Under the pieces are notes generated by a model, which worked only from the letters and a program-made list of their open reading frames with translations, was not told the DNA's origin and did not search any database. This document shows positions 15,860-23,093 of a stretch of DNA of 23,316 nucleotides, piece after piece. Made by a program: the position numbers and the translations under genes. The DNA is from a virus: positions 1 through 23,316 of IMG/VR virus record IMGVR_UViG_3300017989_003100; one strand, 5' to 3'. Numbering within the stretch: position 1 is the stretch's first letter; each line of letters starts with the position of its first letter.

Positions 15860-15908
15860 AATTTTCGCTGTTTCGGACTAATATATAGTGGAGTTGCAGT
15901 AATTCTGG

Positions 15909-15944
15909 AAAAGATAGAAAGTCTATTTTTTGTTTTTGTTTTTT
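15909..15944 (+). terminator. Probable intrinsic terminator after the nrdD operon
   Basis: ATAGA (15914-15918) pairs with TCTAT (15922-15926), extended by A/T pairs on both sides. A run of T residues broken by single G follows (15926-15944). The stem is weak, but the T-tract is long. A second small hairpin, GAGTT-GCAGT-AATTC (15891-15905), precedes it. It separates the nrdD operon from the RNA cluster. Confidence 0.5.
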
Positions 15945-15960
15945 AGCTACCGAGAAAGAA

Positions 15961-16036
15961 GCGGGCCGAAGGAAATGGGTTATCACCTGAAAAGATAAAC
16001 CCCCACTTCTAACAACTTGCCCGCAGATACATTTCC
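15961..16036 (+). ncRNA. Structured RNA unit 0 (no tRNA body), pseudoknotted
   Basis: Outer helix: GCGGGC (15961-15966) with GCCCGC (16019-16024). Inner helix: GGGTTATC (15977-15984) with GATAAACCC (15994-16002, one bulge), capped by a short loop. A crossing helix, GGAAATG (15971-15977) with CATTTCC (16030-16036), makes a pseudoknot. The strand order GGCCG-AAGGAAAT-GGGTTA on the left and GAAAA...AACCC on the right aligns with units 1 and 2, which have a permuted tRNA-like body where this unit has a loop. Not a family I can name. Transcription from the + strand is inferred from the neighbouring tRNA motifs. Confidence 0.55.
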
Positions 16037-16161
16037 CGAGCCGGAGTAAGAGGATTATCAATTGATACCGCTGTGTGTGGGTTCGAGCCCCACCTCATCT
16101 GGGTGAGTAGCTCAATTGGAAGAGCGGCGGAAAAATTCTCCTTTTACATCTTTTGTTCGGG
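16035..16161 (+). ncRNA. Structured RNA unit 1 enclosing a circularly permuted tRNA-like body
   Basis: The 3' half of a tRNA comes first. Anticodon-stem strand CCGC 16068-16071, variable TGTGT, T-arm GTGGG-TTCGAGC-CCCAC 16077-16093 and acceptor CTCATCT 16094-16100. The 5' half follows with no gap: acceptor GGGTGAG 16101-16107, TA, D-arm GCTC-AATTGGAA-GAGC 16110-16125, G26 and GCGG 16127-16130. All four arms pair, and D-loop and T-loop consensus bases are present. Flanking helices enclose it: GAGGATT (16050-16056) with AATTCTC (16134-16140), and CCCGAGC (16035-16041) with GTTCGGG (16155-16161). No anticodon can be read, because the loop is where the two outer ends would have to be joined. No discriminator base or CCA lies between acceptor strands. 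Confidence 0.75.
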
Positions 16162-16180
16162 TCCTACTTTTTATGTATTG

Positions 16181-16331
16181 GTTGAGCCGAGTCGAAAGGG
16201 TTACCATCAATAAACACTAACAGAGCGGTTCGAATCCGTAACTCATCGAGGACAAGCCGTCTTGATGAGACTAGTCCAATTGGAAGAGACAAGTGCGAAA
16301 AACCCACCTTTCGAGTAGTGTTTTGCTCAAC
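16181..16331 (+). ncRNA. Structured RNA unit 2 enclosing a second permuted tRNA-like body
   Basis: Same order as unit 1 with different bases in the stems. CACT 16215-16218, T-arm GCGG-TTCGAAT-CCGT 16225-16239, then CTCATCGAG 16242-16250, a ten-base loop and CTTGATGAG 16261-16269. The last two form a 9-bp hairpin that includes the acceptor stem. A D-arm follows (GTC...GAC around AATTGGAA, 16274-16290), then AGTG 16292-16295, which pairs with CACT. The enclosing helices are TCGAAA-GGGTT (16192-16202) with AACCC...TTTCGA (16301-16305, 16309-16314), and GTTGAGC (16181-16187) with GCTCAAC (16325-16331). T- and acceptor-stem edges have A-A mismatches, and the D-stem is short, so this body is less canonical than unit 1. 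Confidence 0.68.
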
Positions 16332-16368
16332 TGATATATAAATGCTCGCCTAGACGTTGCTAAATATG

Positions 16369-16401
16369 TGATATACATTTGATACACATGTGATACATTT
16401 T
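16369..16401 (+). repeat. Three tandem 11-base repeats before the ubiquitin-like gene
   Basis: TGATATACATT, TGATACACATG and TGATACATTTT follow one another with a period of 11 bases, about one helical turn, ending 51 bases before the modifier ATG. The middle copy contains the palindrome CACATGTG. This could be an iterated protein-binding site or an upstream promoter element. No convincing -35/-10 pair is seen between here and the gene. Confidence 0.6.
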
Positions 16402-16452: not shown

Positions 16453-16668
16453 ATGATCATCAAAAAGGGTGTGCAGCAAATGCATATGGACCTGAACGGC
16501 GCGACAAAGACGGTACAGGACGTTTTCGACGTCTACCGTTCAGTTCTCAACCTCGGAAACAACGTCAGCGTTCTCGTTGACGGTCGTGAGGCCAACATGC
16601 AGACGCAGGTCGGCGATAGCAATATCGTCGAGTTCACAGTGACAGAGGAGCTCCGCTCAAAGGGCTAA
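16453..16668 (+). CDS. Ubiquitin-like beta-grasp modifier (PRTRC protein C-like)
   Basis: 71 residues. The predicted order is beta-beta-helix-beta-beta: a strand pair to about residue 18, the helix TVQDVFDVYRSVL, strand NVSVLVDG, an EANMQTQVGDSN turn, and strand IVEFTVTEEL, ending RSKG. A free C-terminal Gly is what E1-type enzymes adenylate, so no processing would be needed. Size, fold order and a Gly end fit PRTRC system protein C and other bacterial ubiquitin-like proteins, and the next genes are E2-, JAB- and E1-like. ATG 16453 has GGAG 7 bases upstream; the open frame from 16390 has no SD. Codons favour C/G endings (GAC, GTC, CTC, AAC), unlike its neighbours, suggesting strong expression or separate origin. 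Confidence 0.75.
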   Translation: MIIKKGVQQMHMDLNGATKTVQDVFDVYRSVLNLGNNVSVLVDGREANMQTQVGDSNIVEFTVTEELRSKG

Positions 16669-16694
16669 GAGTCGCTGAGGCTACATTTTTTGTG

Positions 16695-16735
16695 AAAAAG
16701 GAAGGGAGAAATAAAATTCTCCCTTCCTTTTTTTT
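16695..16735 (+). terminator. Strong intrinsic terminator after the modifier gene
   Basis: GGAAGGGAGAA (16700-16710) pairs perfectly with TTCTCCCTTCC (16717-16727). The stem is extended by A-T pairs to about 16 bp and followed by an uninterrupted T-tract. The A-run on the other side would let it work in both directions. It sits between the modifier and the three enzyme genes, so the latter would be made by read-through or a promoter not seen here. Confidence 0.92.
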
Positions 16736-16755
16736 ATCCATCAGGAGGCTATAAA

Positions 16756-17418
16756 ATGGCCAAAAAAGCCGTTAAATCTGTTCGTAAAATAAAGCGAGTC
16801 CCGCCAGCCATCTTATCTGTTTCGTTAACTGGCAAAGATAATGATTTCGAATCGGGTAGAAGTTTTCATCTATTTGAAAATTACCCGATGATCCGCCCCA
16901 TAAAGTTTGACGGAAAGGATCACATACTACAACTTCCGTATAGCTATTACTTGATAACTGTTTATGCCACTGCAAAACAGTTTGCTATTAATTCCGTATC
17001 GATCGTTATATCTAAATCTAAGCTATTGGATTGGGAGCAACTAGTTTTGTGTATGCTTCCAAACACATACGCAGATAGCGGTCGGGTTTGTTGGGGGTGT
17101 CACGCAGTTAAGGATGTCGACATCTCGAACTTCTATGACGAAGTTGTCGCATTGTTTTGGAGCTCCGCGTTTAATCACGATATTGGGGTTAGTCCAAAAC
17201 ATTTTGACAAGACATTGCAAGAACGGCCGGGAGATTTCTCTCACATGTTCTGTGATGTTCTTTTGCGACACTTAAGATCTGCTGGCGTTGAAGAAAAGTA
17301 CGATAGAGTTCTTGCCGAAGCCGTAATTGAAGAAGCGCCGAAGAGTACTACAGCAGATAAGAAAAAGAAAACCGCGGACCCAGGAAATGACGCCGAAGAA
17401 ATTCGTGCGGCATTTTAG
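16756..17418 (+). CDS. E2-like protein (PRTRC protein B-like)
   Basis: 220 residues from ATG 16756, with AGGAGG eight bases upstream. An N-terminal beta region is followed by LPYSYYLITVYA (60-71), a strand, then LPNTYADSGRVCWGC (101-115). The arrangement of LPN, aromatic, G and C-x-G matches the E2-like fold of PRTRC protein B. Cys 112 (RVCWG) is the candidate catalytic cysteine, with Cys 115 three residues on. A helical ending with an F-x-SSAFNHDIG segment and a disordered Lys/Ala tail follow. It would receive the modifier from the E1 and pass it to a target. Assignment rests on local motif pattern and gene context, and whether Cys 112 is active is untested. Confidence 0.65.
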   Translation: MAKKAVKSVRKIKRVPPAILSVSLTGKDNDFESGRSFHLFENYPMIRPIKFDGKDHILQLPYSYYLITVYATAKQFAINSVSIVISKSKLLDWEQLVLCMLPNTYADSGRVCWGCHAVKDVDISNFYDEVVALFWSSAFNHDIGVSPKHFDKTLQERPGDFSHMFCDVLLRHLRSAGVEEKYDRVLAEAVIEEAPKSTTADKKKKTADPGNDAEEIRAAF

Positions 17419-17434
17419 TGAAAATTAGAGGTCA

Positions 17435-18391
17435 TTGAGTGTAGATATGAAACTTACAATATCGAGAGACAAACTTACAAGGTCTGAAACTCCGTATAAG
17501 GTGACTCTTATGGAAGCGACAGTTATTTACGCTAAGATGCTGGGCTGGGTGATAATCGCGGATAAAGATAGATGTCTGGTCCCTGACTGGGAAGAATTTC
17601 CGAGGATCCCGTCTTCCTGGTTCTGGTCACTGATACATGATTTGATGAAATACAAAAAAGAAGTAACGCTAGTGCTGTATATCGATACCGAGACTAAAGA
17701 GTGGAGTTTCGACGTGCCCGATCAATCGGGCAGTGGGGCTTCATGCCATTACGTAGTTCGTCGGTTTGATGATAACCGCGAGCCGTTTGGCACGATACAT
17801 ACACACCCCAATATGAGTGCGTTTCATAGTGGGACCGATCACCATGACGAGTCGGGCGAGAATAACTTAGACGGCGTACATTTCGTATTGGGATTTTCGG
17901 AATTTTCAAAATTCCAGATATCGGGTGTTTTGACTTGCAACGGTGCGAGATCAGAAATTGACATCTTTAAAGCCTTTGACATCGAGGAGATTGACTTAAG
18001 TGAAAGACTTAAGGAAGCTTCTAGCGCATACGATAACAATCCAGTCGTTAAAAAAGACAGAGCAACCAACAGAACCGTCTGCAAAGGAAGAGCCTTCTCA
18101 GCCGACGATGACGAATGGGAGTACGGATGGAAAGGATACAGCGGAGTCCCCGCAGGAGTCAGTTACGGGACTCCATATTGTCCAGGTAGGGGCGGGGGGA
18201 ATTGGAACCAAGCTGGCGGACGGAGTAGTACGCCGGTTGCAAAAGCAGGAAACGTCGTCCCTAGTAATAGTGGACGGGGACACAATAGAGCCGAGCAATC
18301 TGACAAGACAAGAGTTTACACCGATCCAAGTGGGAATGCCGAAAGCAGAAGCATTGTGCCAAGGGTTGCAAGAAAAATATCCGGAAGCTGA
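17435..18391 (+). CDS. JAMM/JAB metallopeptidase (PRTRC protein A-like) with long overlapping tail
   Basis: A complete JAMM motif lies at residues 122-135: H122-T-H124-P, seven residues after H124 to S132, then D135 (HTHPNMSAFHSGTD). These zinc peptidases cleave isopeptide bonds or trim ubiquitin-like proteins. The JAB domain ends near residue 190. The last 130 residues, from about base 18000, are Gly/Ser/Arg-rich, look disordered and are read in a different frame from the E1-like gene on the same DNA. The start is TTG 17435 after AGAGGT at spacing 5; ATG 17447 is too far from that SD. Since the modifier already ends in Gly, the enzyme more likely removes conjugates than matures a precursor. 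Confidence 0.85.
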   Translation: MSVDMKLTISRDKLTRSETPYKVTLMEATVIYAKMLGWVIIADKDRCLVPDWEEFPRIPSSWFWSLIHDLMKYKKEVTLVLYIDTETKEWSFDVPDQSGSGASCHYVVRRFDDNREPFGTIHTHPNMSAFHSGTDHHDESGENNLDGVHFVLGFSEFSKFQISGVLTCNGARSEIDIFKAFDIEEIDLSERLKEASSAYDNNPVVKKDRATNRTVCKGRAFSADDDEWEYGWKGYSGVPAGVSYGTPYCPGRGGGNWNQAGGRSSTPVAKAGNVVPSNSGRGHNRAEQSDKTRVYTDPSGNAESRSIVPRVARKISGS

Positions 18392-18941
18392 GTTGGATAT
18401 AGGATTCGTACATAAGTATGTGGGTGAAGAGTTTATCAAAGAGAACTTTAATGGCGGAAAGGTTGACCTCGTTCTTCTTGCGGTCGATTCTGACGTCACT
18501 CGTAAGTTCTTTATTGAGAGCTATGACGGGTGGATTATTTCTGGTCAAAACGACTACCAAGACGGTAGTACGTTTATTTGGCATCCAGAATTGAACCCGA
18601 ACCCCACAAAATCTCCTATTCCTGTTTATGTCGAGTTAGGTGAAAGCGGCGTAGACAGGTCGAAAATGAGCTGTCAGGAGATCTCTAATTTGGAAGGCGG
18701 AGAACAACTGAACTTCGCTAATTTTATGGCCGCAGGTTGGATGTTAGCGGCGCTGGAAGCTCTTGTCGGTAATATTCCGCTGGAGTGGAATTTCGTCTTC
18801 TTTAACCTTCAAACGGGAGAAGCCTCGTCTTCTTGGCGCGGGGTTGATGTTCGACCTAATTTGCTTCAGCCTCTTCGTAGCAGGCCTGACTTACCTGATA
18901 CAGAGGTCGAAGCGCCCGCCGAGGCCGCCGCGGCAGAGTAA
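18000..18941 (+). CDS. E1/ThiF-like adenylating enzyme (PRTRC ThiF-like)
   Basis: 313 residues. The Rossmann ATP site is GAGGIG at residues 64-69. Then come VDGDTIEPSNLTRQ (acidic, Asn and Arg-Gln residues of the E1 active site) and VGMPKAEAL with the conserved Lys. Cys 225 in SCQEISNLEGGEQ is the likely thioester cysteine. It would adenylate the modifier's C-terminal Gly. There are no ThiF-type zinc CxxC pairs. GTG 18000 has GAGGAG ten bases upstream; ATG 18108 in frame lacks a good SD. With the GTG start it overlaps the JAB gene by 392 bases in another frame. The first 55 residues are disordered and could be dispensable, but the ATP site itself still lies in the overlap. Confidence 0.85.
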   Translation: MKDLRKLLAHTITIQSLKKTEQPTEPSAKEEPSQPTMTNGSTDGKDTAESPQESVTGLHIVQVGAGGIGTKLADGVVRRLQKQETSSLVIVDGDTIEPSNLTRQEFTPIQVGMPKAEALCQGLQEKYPEAELDIGFVHKYVGEEFIKENFNGGKVDLVLLAVDSDVTRKFFIESYDGWIISGQNDYQDGSTFIWHPELNPNPTKSPIPVYVELGESGVDRSKMSCQEISNLEGGEQLNFANFMAAGWMLAALEALVGNIPLEWNFVFFNLQTGEASSSWRGVDVRPNLLQPLRSRPDLPDTEVEAPAEAAAAE

Positions 18942-22151: not shown

Positions 22152-23093
22152 ATGCGTCGGACGTCGAAGGCGCATTCTCACAAAGCTAAAAGTGATTATT
22201 GCTTCATCTCACGCTTCGTAGAAACTCATGGATTAATTTGCCCTACTTTTGACATTCTTCATTCAAATGTTGGGTGCCCGTTTAAGTGTGGTTATTGCTA
22301 TCTTCAATCATTACTTGCGGGAAGTACAGATCCGAGATTCTATGATAATTACGAAGATATGGTGAAGGAAATTTCGAAATGGGGTTTGGAAAATCCCAAT
22401 GGCAGGATAAAAGCCGGTGGAGTAAGTGACGGGCTAGCTTCAGGATCAGATTATTTGTTATATCTGATTCCTGTATTTAGACTGTTGCCAGACGCTAATT
22501 TGGTCGTTTTAAGTAAGGCTGGGTATGATAACGCAGAAGCGAAGAAACCTCTGCGTAAACTTTCGCCAGTTCCTAGTGTGACATTTAGTTGGACACTCAC
22601 ACCAGAAAAGTATAGGCGAGATTACGAGGCACAGACTTCCACTACCTATCAGAGAATTAAGCTTGCGCGAGCCTACGCAAATGAAGGCTGGCAGATCAGA
22701 GCTAGAATAGACCCCATTTTACATGTTGACGGATGGGAAGCCCAATATATTTCCCTATGTCAGATGATTGTCGGGTCTGGAGTTCCATTTGATCGTGTTA
22801 CTTTGTCTTATCTCAAATGGACGCCTAGACTTGTAGGGGTCAGTCGTACTCACAATATCCGATATAACTTTAGGGATGTATTTACAGATGTCACGGAATC
22901 GTTGGACGAAACAGGCGATATTGAAAAGGTCGGCCAAGACCATCATGCAAGTTCTGAAATTCGTCTTCGTTCGTATAATTTAATCCGTGATAATCTCGGT
23001 GACATCCCAGTTGCATTATGCAAAGAAACGCCAGAAGTCTCTCGGGAGTTCCATGGAGATAATCCTAGAACGCCTTGCGACTGTATGCATTAA
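22152..23093 (+). CDS. Radical SAM protein, spore photoproduct lyase-like
   Basis: 313 residues. The cluster motif CxxxCxxC is at Cys 42, 46 and 49 (GCPFKCGYCYLQ). The CYLQ that follows is characteristic of spore photoproduct lyase (SPL), as are the later VVLSKAG, VTFSWTLTP, RIKLARAYANEGW and RARIDPI blocks in SPL order. SPL uses an S-adenosylmethionine radical to reverse the thymine dimer formed in spores or dehydrated DNA. It is not NrdG-like in length or sequence. The C-terminus ends CDCMH, an added Cys pair. It may repair phage DNA or carry out a related radical reaction. Terminator 22080 isolates it from the portal unit, and no clear promoter is seen between. Confidence 0.75.
   Translation: MRRTSKAHSHKAKSDYCFISRFVETHGLICPTFDILHSNVGCPFKCGYCYLQSLLAGSTDPRFYDNYEDMVKEISKWGLENPNGRIKAGGVSDGLASGSDYLLYLIPVFRLLPDANLVVLSKAGYDNAEAKKPLRKLSPVPSVTFSWTLTPEKYRRDYEAQTSTTYQRIKLARAYANEGWQIRARIDPILHVDGWEAQYISLCQMIVGSGVPFDRVTLSYLKWTPRLVGVSRTHNIRYNFRDVFTDVTESLDETGDIEKVGQDHHASSEIRLRSYNLIRDNLGDIPVALCKETPEVSREFHGDNPRTPCDCMH

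What the first reader, a model, noticed from the sequence alone, without database searches (positions are those of the whole stretch)
16035..16161. Circularly permuted tRNA-like gene (unit 1)
The 3' half of a tRNA (anticodon-stem strand, variable loop, T-arm, acceptor strand) lies directly upstream of its 5' half (acceptor strand, D-arm, anticodon-stem strand). All four arms pair, spacing is canonical (variable loop 5, D-loop AATTGGAA, T-loop TTCGAGC), and the join is at the acceptor end with zero spacer. Permuted tRNA genes are known from some algae and archaea. In bacteria, gene permutation is known for tmRNA. A phage version would need an unusual maturation step to join the ends at the anticodon loop.
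Basis: seen in the sequence. Interest (0 to 1): 0.92.

Follow-up and report, generated by a model that had tools for sequence, protein, structure and literature searches.

The report
Phage Y RNA cluster mimicking tRNA
The 'back-to-front tRNA' in this virus fragment is a YrlA-type Y RNA, a known small RNA that imitates a tRNA and normally partners the ring protein Ro60; it lies in a row of three such RNAs, so it is real but belongs to a known kind.

Summary
At 16035-16161 a T-arm, an acceptor hairpin and a D-arm lie in permuted order with tRNA spacing, far beyond chance. It is not a permuted tRNA gene waiting for its ends to be joined. Its outer strands pair in a long bulged helix, the Ro60-binding stem of Y RNAs, and the whole matches Rfam YrlA (E 9e-7). 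A model built from 18 Ro60-linked phage YrlAs, without the window, finds it at E 3.5e-16. It is the middle of three tandem Y RNAs: a plain Y hairpin (15961-16024, profile E 3.6e-11), this YrlA, and a divergent YrlA-like copy (16181-16331). All three share CCG-N8-GGRTTAYCA, found nowhere else in the window. Phage Y RNAs beside Ro60 genes are common: 20 of the first 50 permuted-pattern records have Ro60 about 1 kb downstream, and 340 catalogued phages encode Ro60. No Ro60 gene lies in this 23-kb fragment, but in 4 of 15 phages with the same hairpin Ro60 lies 10 to over 100 kb away. Best mechanism: a phage Y RNA holding Ro60 and presenting a tRNA mimic, gating the ring or tethering an exonuclease. 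New member of a known kind.

The parts
15961..16024 (+). Y RNA 1: plain Y hairpin without tRNA-like module. Outer stem GCGGGC 15961-15966 / GCCCGC 16019-16024; Ro motif CCG-N8-GGGTTATCA 15966-15985; inner stem 15972-15979 / 16002-16009 (one A-C mismatch); 3' strand motif AACTTG 16014-16019
   Evidence: nhmmer profile of 14 Ro60-linked phage Y hairpins, window not included: E 3.6e-11; nematode stem-bulge RNA model RF01656 E 4.4e-4 in 501 bp; motif search
16035..16161 (+). Y RNA 2 (the finding): YrlA-type RNA
   Evidence: Rfam RF02553 43.4 bits, E 9.4e-7; R1 50.7 bits, E 3.5e-16; outer stem also matches RF01656, E 0.035
16035..16054 (+). 5' strand of the Ro60-binding stem of Y RNA 2: CCCGAGC 16035-16041, internal loop CGGA, GTAAGAGGA 16046-16054, followed by TTATCA
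   Evidence: sequence; pairing; motif
16139..16161 (+). 3' strand of the Ro60-binding stem of Y RNA 2: TCCTTTTAC 16139-16147, bulge ATCTTTT, GTTCGGG 16155-16161
   Evidence: sequence
16068..16130 (+). permuted tRNA-like module: closing stem 16068-16071 / 16127-16130, variable loop 16072-16076, T-arm 16077-16093, acceptor hairpin 16094-16107, D-arm 16110-16125
   Evidence: sequence
16181..16331 (+). Y RNA 3: divergent YrlA-like RNA. Outer stem GTTGAGC 16181-16187 / GCTCAAC 16325-16331; inner stem TCGAAAGG 16192-16199 / CCTTTCGA 16307-16314; closing stem CACT 16215-16218 / AGTG 16292-16295; T-arm 16225-16239; lengthened acceptor hairpin 16242-16269; D-arm reduced to 3 bp 16274-16290
   Evidence: second-best R1 hit in the window, 11.2 bits, E 0.015 (the next, spurious hit has 10.9 bits, so the case rests on position and architecture); Ro motif; third-best Y-hairpin profile hit; repeat of the D-arm of Y RNA 2

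Best explanation
A phage-encoded cluster of three Y RNAs; the finding is the middle one, a YrlA-type RNA. Shown by sequence: its 5' and 3' parts can pair into a long bulged helix with the Ro60-binding features of Y RNAs, and the apex carries a T-arm, acceptor hairpin and D-arm in permuted order, so it imitates a tRNA whose anticodon loop is replaced by the Ro stem. Inferred from known systems: the linear transcript is the working form, the stem binds the outside of a Ro60 (Rsr) ring encoded elsewhere in the phage or by the host, and the tRNA-like apex either gates RNA entry to the ring or tethers a 3'-5' exonuclease such as PNPase, so that phage or host structured RNAs are decayed or checked during infection. 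The plain hairpin (Y RNA 1) would be a Ro60 ligand without the tRNA mimic.
For: Rfam YrlA match at 16047-16149, E 9.4e-7. Model R1 from 18 Ro60-linked phage YrlAs, window excluded: E 3.5e-16; that set shows strong covariation (96.7% of cells paired, score 0.639 against 0.158 shuffled). The outer stem independently matches the nematode stem-bulge (Y RNA homologue) model, as does the upstream hairpin. Motif CCG-N8-GGRTTAYCA occurs three times in the window, only in the three elements; 0.01 expected. Profile of Ro60-linked Y hairpins: E 3.6e-11 for Y RNA 1, next two hits are the 5' arms of Y RNAs 2 and 3. Permuted-pattern loci lie 0.2-1 kb upstream of Ro60 genes in 20 of 21 TROVE-bearing records among the first 50. 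Records with the full Y hairpin carry TROVE in 15 of 20 cases, against 0 of 10 that share only the 5' motif. Three YrlA-like modules stand in tandem upstream of the Ro gene of Mycobacterium prophage prophiGD43A-5. Mechanism from Ro60/Y RNA work as reviewed in PMC6181284 and PMC8394870.
Against: No TROVE/Ro60 gene in the 23,316-bp record. The YrlA score is below Rfam's gathering score (43.4 against 69), but so were all matches in the 50 phage records searched. The unconstrained fold prefers another pairing inside the module by about 2 kcal/mol. Y RNA 3 is weakly supported as a tRNA mimic. No expression or binding data.
Confidence: 0.88

Rival explanations
1. A true circularly permuted tRNA gene: the transcript is joined at the anticodon loop, opened at the acceptor end, and becomes a working tRNA.
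For: Order of halves, canonical spacing and paired arms.
Against: Strands on both sides of the anticodon stem run into a 9-bp plus 7-bp Ro-type helix, not a 7-nt loop with an anticodon; no bulge-helix-bulge motif by inspection; zero spacer at the acceptor end leaves no leader, trailer or CCA. Relatives sit next to Ro60 genes. Known permuted tRNA genes are from unicellular algae and one archaeon (PMC3978253).
Confidence: 0.02
2. Same RNAs, but acting mainly as decoys for enzymes that handle tRNAs (for example host anticodon nucleases or modification enzymes) rather than as Ro60 regulators; no phage Ro60 is needed.
For: No Ro60 in the fragment; a 277-kb record with three Y motifs has no TROVE match; Hughes et al. 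raise a competitive-inhibitor role for YrlA (PMC7790460).
Against: Ro-binding stem features are conserved in all three elements, including one with no tRNA mimic; the window units lack an anticodon arm.
Confidence: 0.12
3. Chance remnants of two degraded tandem tRNA genes lying end to end.
For: R1 also scores junctions of tandem tRNAs in tRNA arrays, so permuted order alone is not specific.
Against: No tRNA anywhere in the window; the two acceptor strands and the two anticodon strands pair with each other across the junction, and the Ro stem encloses the module.
Confidence: 0.01
4. Y RNA 3 is a decaying duplicate of Y RNA 2, not a working RNA.
For: Reduced D-stem, weak R1 score, minimum-energy fold does not show the Ro stem.
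Against: Uninterrupted 7-bp outer and 8-bp inner stems whose sequences differ from those of Y RNA 2, and the intact Ro motif.
Confidence: 0.3

Closest known systems
YrlA (Y RNA-like A; Rfam RF02553), the tRNA-mimicking Y RNA of bacteria and phages
   Same: Permuted T-arm, acceptor hairpin and D-arm on a long bulged stem formed by the two ends; anticodon loop replaced by that stem; score (43.4 bits) within the range of Ro60-linked phage YrlAs (about 26-53 bits).
   Different: Below Rfam's gathering score; shorter acceptor hairpin; Ro stem of the CCG-N8-GGRTTAYC type; no Ro60 gene in the fragment.
Phage Ro60 plus Y RNA loci (Mycobacterium prophage prophiGD43A-5, Microbacterium phage Big4, IMG/VR record behind L009)
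   Same: Y RNAs in the phage genome, often several in a row; Big4 and L009 share the GCCGAA-N6-GGGTTATC stem.
   Different: There a Ro-like gene lies within about 1.3 kb; here the next genes are a PRTRC-like cassette.
Plain Y hairpins; nematode stem-bulge RNAs (RF01656)
   Same: Y RNA 1 matches both the phage hairpin profile and the stem-bulge model.
   Different: Very short loop, no extra hairpins.
Circularly permuted tRNA genes of algae and archaea
   Same: 3' half precedes 5' half.
   Different: No anticodon loop, no bulge-helix-bulge, no intervening sequence; not expected to become a tRNA.

Membership tests
YrlA-type Y RNAs (bacterial and phage Y RNAs with a tRNA-like module) | T-arm, acceptor hairpin and D-arm in permuted order with tRNA spacing | tested here: met
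YrlA-type Y RNAs (bacterial and phage Y RNAs with a tRNA-like module) | 5' and 3' ends pair in a bulged stem with Ro60-binding sequence features | tested here: met
YrlA-type Y RNAs (bacterial and phage Y RNAs with a tRNA-like module) | Partner Ro60/Rsr gene in the same genome, usually adjacent | tested here: inconclusive
   No TROVE in the 23-kb fragment; in 4 of 15 comparable phage records the Ro60 gene lies about 10, 19, 87 and more than 100 kb from the hairpin
YrlA-type Y RNAs (bacterial and phage Y RNAs with a tRNA-like module) | Binds Ro60; carries tRNA-type D and pseudouridine modifications | not testable with these tools
   needs bench work; known for other YrlAs (PMC8394870)
Rfam RF02553 as curated | Score over the gathering threshold of 69 bits | tested here: not met
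   43.4 bits; no match in 50 other phage records passes either, including those next to Ro60, so the threshold excludes phage forms
Circularly permuted tRNA gene | 7-nt anticodon loop formed when the two ends are joined | tested here: not met
   by inspection, the strands outside CCGC/GCGG run into the 9-bp and 7-bp outer helices
Circularly permuted tRNA gene | Bulge-helix-bulge motif at the joining site and an intervening sequence at the acceptor end | tested here: not met
   by inspection only: internal loop of 4 and 7 nt with long flanking helices; zero spacer between acceptor strands
tmRNA, including permuted forms | tRNA-like domain plus tag reading frame | tested here: not met
   ARAGORN reports none

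The most novel reading that the evidence does not exclude
The phage carries Y RNAs but no Ro60 of its own, and uses three differently built RNAs either to take over a host Ro60 ring or to act without Ro60 as tRNA decoys. This would be a Y RNA system separated from its protein partner.
Probability: 0.2. Interest if true: 0.6.

Novelty: new member of a known kind. Interest (0 to 1): 0.35.

Why it matters
It removes a seeming phage permuted tRNA and places it in the Ro60/Y RNA system. It also shows that phage Y RNAs are probably far commoner than annotation suggests: they fall below Rfam's threshold, at least one is annotated as a tRNA, and some lie far from the Ro60 gene. What phage Ro60/Y RNA particles do in infection is an open question that such clusters make testable.

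Tried and rejected
Relatives of the window's own genes: four related-loci scans of IMG/VR (220-aa ORF, 165-aa ORF, portal-like protein, NrdD) found nothing; DNA of 15900-16400 has no match in annotated phages; only the portal-like protein (23-25% identity to Vibrio phages D69, D148, D181 and Salmonella phage Arash, 180-187 kb) and DNA polymerase have hits; D69 and Arash have no TROVE. So covariation could not be tested on close relatives of this cluster, only on the wider set. First Y-hairpin filter was too loose (shuffled control 55%); it was replaced by reading the 3' strands and a profile. The MAFFT alignment of hairpins slipped by a column, so no covariance model was made from it. Promoter and terminator scan not above chance. 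Key papers (Chen 2014, Wang 2018, Sim and Wolin 2018) are not held.

Full report
WHAT IS THERE. The window is a 23,316-bp virus record from IMG/VR with phage replication genes (UDG-exonuclease-PolA fusion, UvsX/RecA-like recombinase, NrdD, portal-like protein). Between NrdD plus a small ORF (end 15859) and the next operon (about 16450) lies about 590 bp without a convincing gene. A descriptor of these arms finds one place in the window and 0.005 per shuffled window. ARAGORN sees no tRNA or tmRNA.

WHAT IT IS. A scan of all Rfam families gives YrlA (RF02553) at 16047-16149, 43.4 bits, E 9.4e-7. YrlA is the bacterial Y RNA with a tRNA-like domain; reviews describe a large stem joining the 5' and 3' ends that binds Rsr/Ro60, with the tRNA-like domain binding PNPase (PMC8394870; PMC6181284). 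The permuted order follows from that design: the ends of the RNA lie where a tRNA has its anticodon loop. No joining of ends is needed.

THREE Y RNAs. Upstream, 15961-16024 is a plain Y hairpin. It matches the nematode stem-bulge RNA model (a Y RNA homologue; E 4.4e-4 in the 501-bp region), and the outer stem of the finding matches the same model (E 0.035). Downstream, 16181-16331 has the same plan: outer stem GTTGAGC/GCTCAAC, inner stem TCGAAAGG/CCTTTCGA, T-arm, a lengthened acceptor hairpin, a weak D-arm and a 4-bp closing stem. The motif CCG-N8-GGRTTAYCA occurs exactly three times in the window, once in each element; 0.01 is expected.

RELATIVES. Of 122 matches, 71 overlap ARAGORN tRNAs, mostly tandem tRNA genes, though a few are Ro60-linked YrlAs that ARAGORN misreads, so this count is only a guide. 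Of the first 50 records, 21 carry a TROVE/Ro60 gene; in 20 of these it lies about 0.2-1 kb downstream of the permuted module on the same strand. None of the YrlA matches passes Rfam's gathering score, so the low score of the window's copy is normal for phages. A model of the permuted module from 18 Ro60-linked loci (R1; window excluded) finds the finding at 50.7 bits, E 3.5e-16, and unit 3 as second-best hit, 11.2 bits, E 0.015, barely above a spurious hit of 10.9 bits. In that set 96.7% of cells pair, covariation score 0.639 against 0.158 shuffled, and sliding the partners destroys it. The D-arm and the last T-stem pairs were fixed by the search pattern and say nothing. R1 is not specific against tandem tRNA arrays; this does not matter in a window without tRNAs.

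THE RO STEM. A scan for GCCGAA-N6-GGGTTATC returned chance matches and true hairpins. Of 20 records in which I read the whole hairpin (3' strand usually ...ACTTGCCCG), 15 carry TROVE; of 10 records with only the 5' motif, none does (the two groups were picked by eye before the TROVE search). A profile of 14 Ro60-linked hairpins finds the window's plain hairpin at E 3.6e-11; its next two, weak hits are the 5' arms of the other two elements. The distance from hairpin to Ro60 is 1.3 kb or less in 11 of the 15 records and about 10, 19, 87 and more than 100 kb in four. Thus the absence of Ro60 from a 23-kb fragment is uninformative; the nearest relatives by portal protein have genomes of 180-187 kb. 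One 277-kb record with three Y motifs has no TROVE match.

PRECEDENT. 340 of 50,697 phage records encode a relative of one phage Ro60, mostly in phages of Mycobacterium and Streptomyces, many annotated 'Ro-like RNA binding protein'. Prophage prophiGD43A-5 has three R1 matches in tandem upstream of its Ro gene, and an annotated 'tRNA-Thr' overlaps the first. Phage Y RNAs are in the literature (Chen et al. 2014, cited in PMC12282133; PMC7765460; PMC7824862).

MECHANISM. Shown: anatomy, homology, association of the same RNA types with Ro60 genes. Inferred: transcription, binding of Ro60, and a gating or tethering role for the tRNA-like apex. I put 0.88 on the identity as Y RNAs of the YrlA type with Ro60 as partner, and about 0.6 on the gate or tether role. 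The main rival role is a tRNA decoy.

LIMITS. No close relative of this cluster was found, so its own stems have no comparative test. The unconstrained fold prefers another module pairing by about 2 kcal/mol. The primary YrlA papers are not in the library; their content is taken from reviews and my own knowledge.

VERDICT. Observation confirmed; the reading as a permuted tRNA gene that must be matured is not supported. It is a new member of a known kind.

Noticed in passing
L008, L010, L012, L014, L018, L019, L023, L030, L031, L034, L040, L045, L049, L058, L059, L063, L072, L080: 18 of 24 Ro60-linked phage YrlAs carry an anticodon arm in exact tRNA register (at least 4 of 5 pairs, 7-nt loops such as CTGTTAA, CTCTTAA, CTTGTAA) just 5' of the variable loop; about 10% expected from shuffles. 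They look like whole tRNAs permuted between positions 26 and 27. I could not check whether this is published.
   Followed up: partly
L011, L025, L044, L073, L077, L092, L093, L118 (and L007): Permuted tRNA-like modules with a CAGCAA/CCGCAA motif inside a short outer stem, several of them in tRNA-rich regions, in records (up to 385 kb) without a TROVE match: 8 of 18 non-TROVE loci against 0 of 26 Ro60-linked ones. Possibly a Ro60-independent class with an unknown partner.
   Followed up: partly
window 16453-18941 (+): Operon next to the Y RNAs resembling a PRTRC cassette: a 71-aa ORF (candidate ubiquitin-like protein; structure prediction too poor to judge, pLDDT 48), a 220-aa ORF, a JAB-domain protein (weak PRTRC_A match) and a ThiF/E1-like protein.
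   Followed up: partly
L190 2220-2298; L185 2637-2845: Phage YrlAs upstream of Ro genes appear annotated as tRNA-Thr(tgt) and as a 'tRNA-OTHER' pseudogene.
   Followed up: partly
L210 (277-kb record): Three Y-type Ro motifs spread over 6 kb, at least one with a permuted tRNA-like module, but no TROVE gene found in the record.
   Followed up: partly
window 22152-23093 (+): Protein with weak similarity to spore photoproduct lyase, a radical SAM DNA repair enzyme.
   Followed up: no
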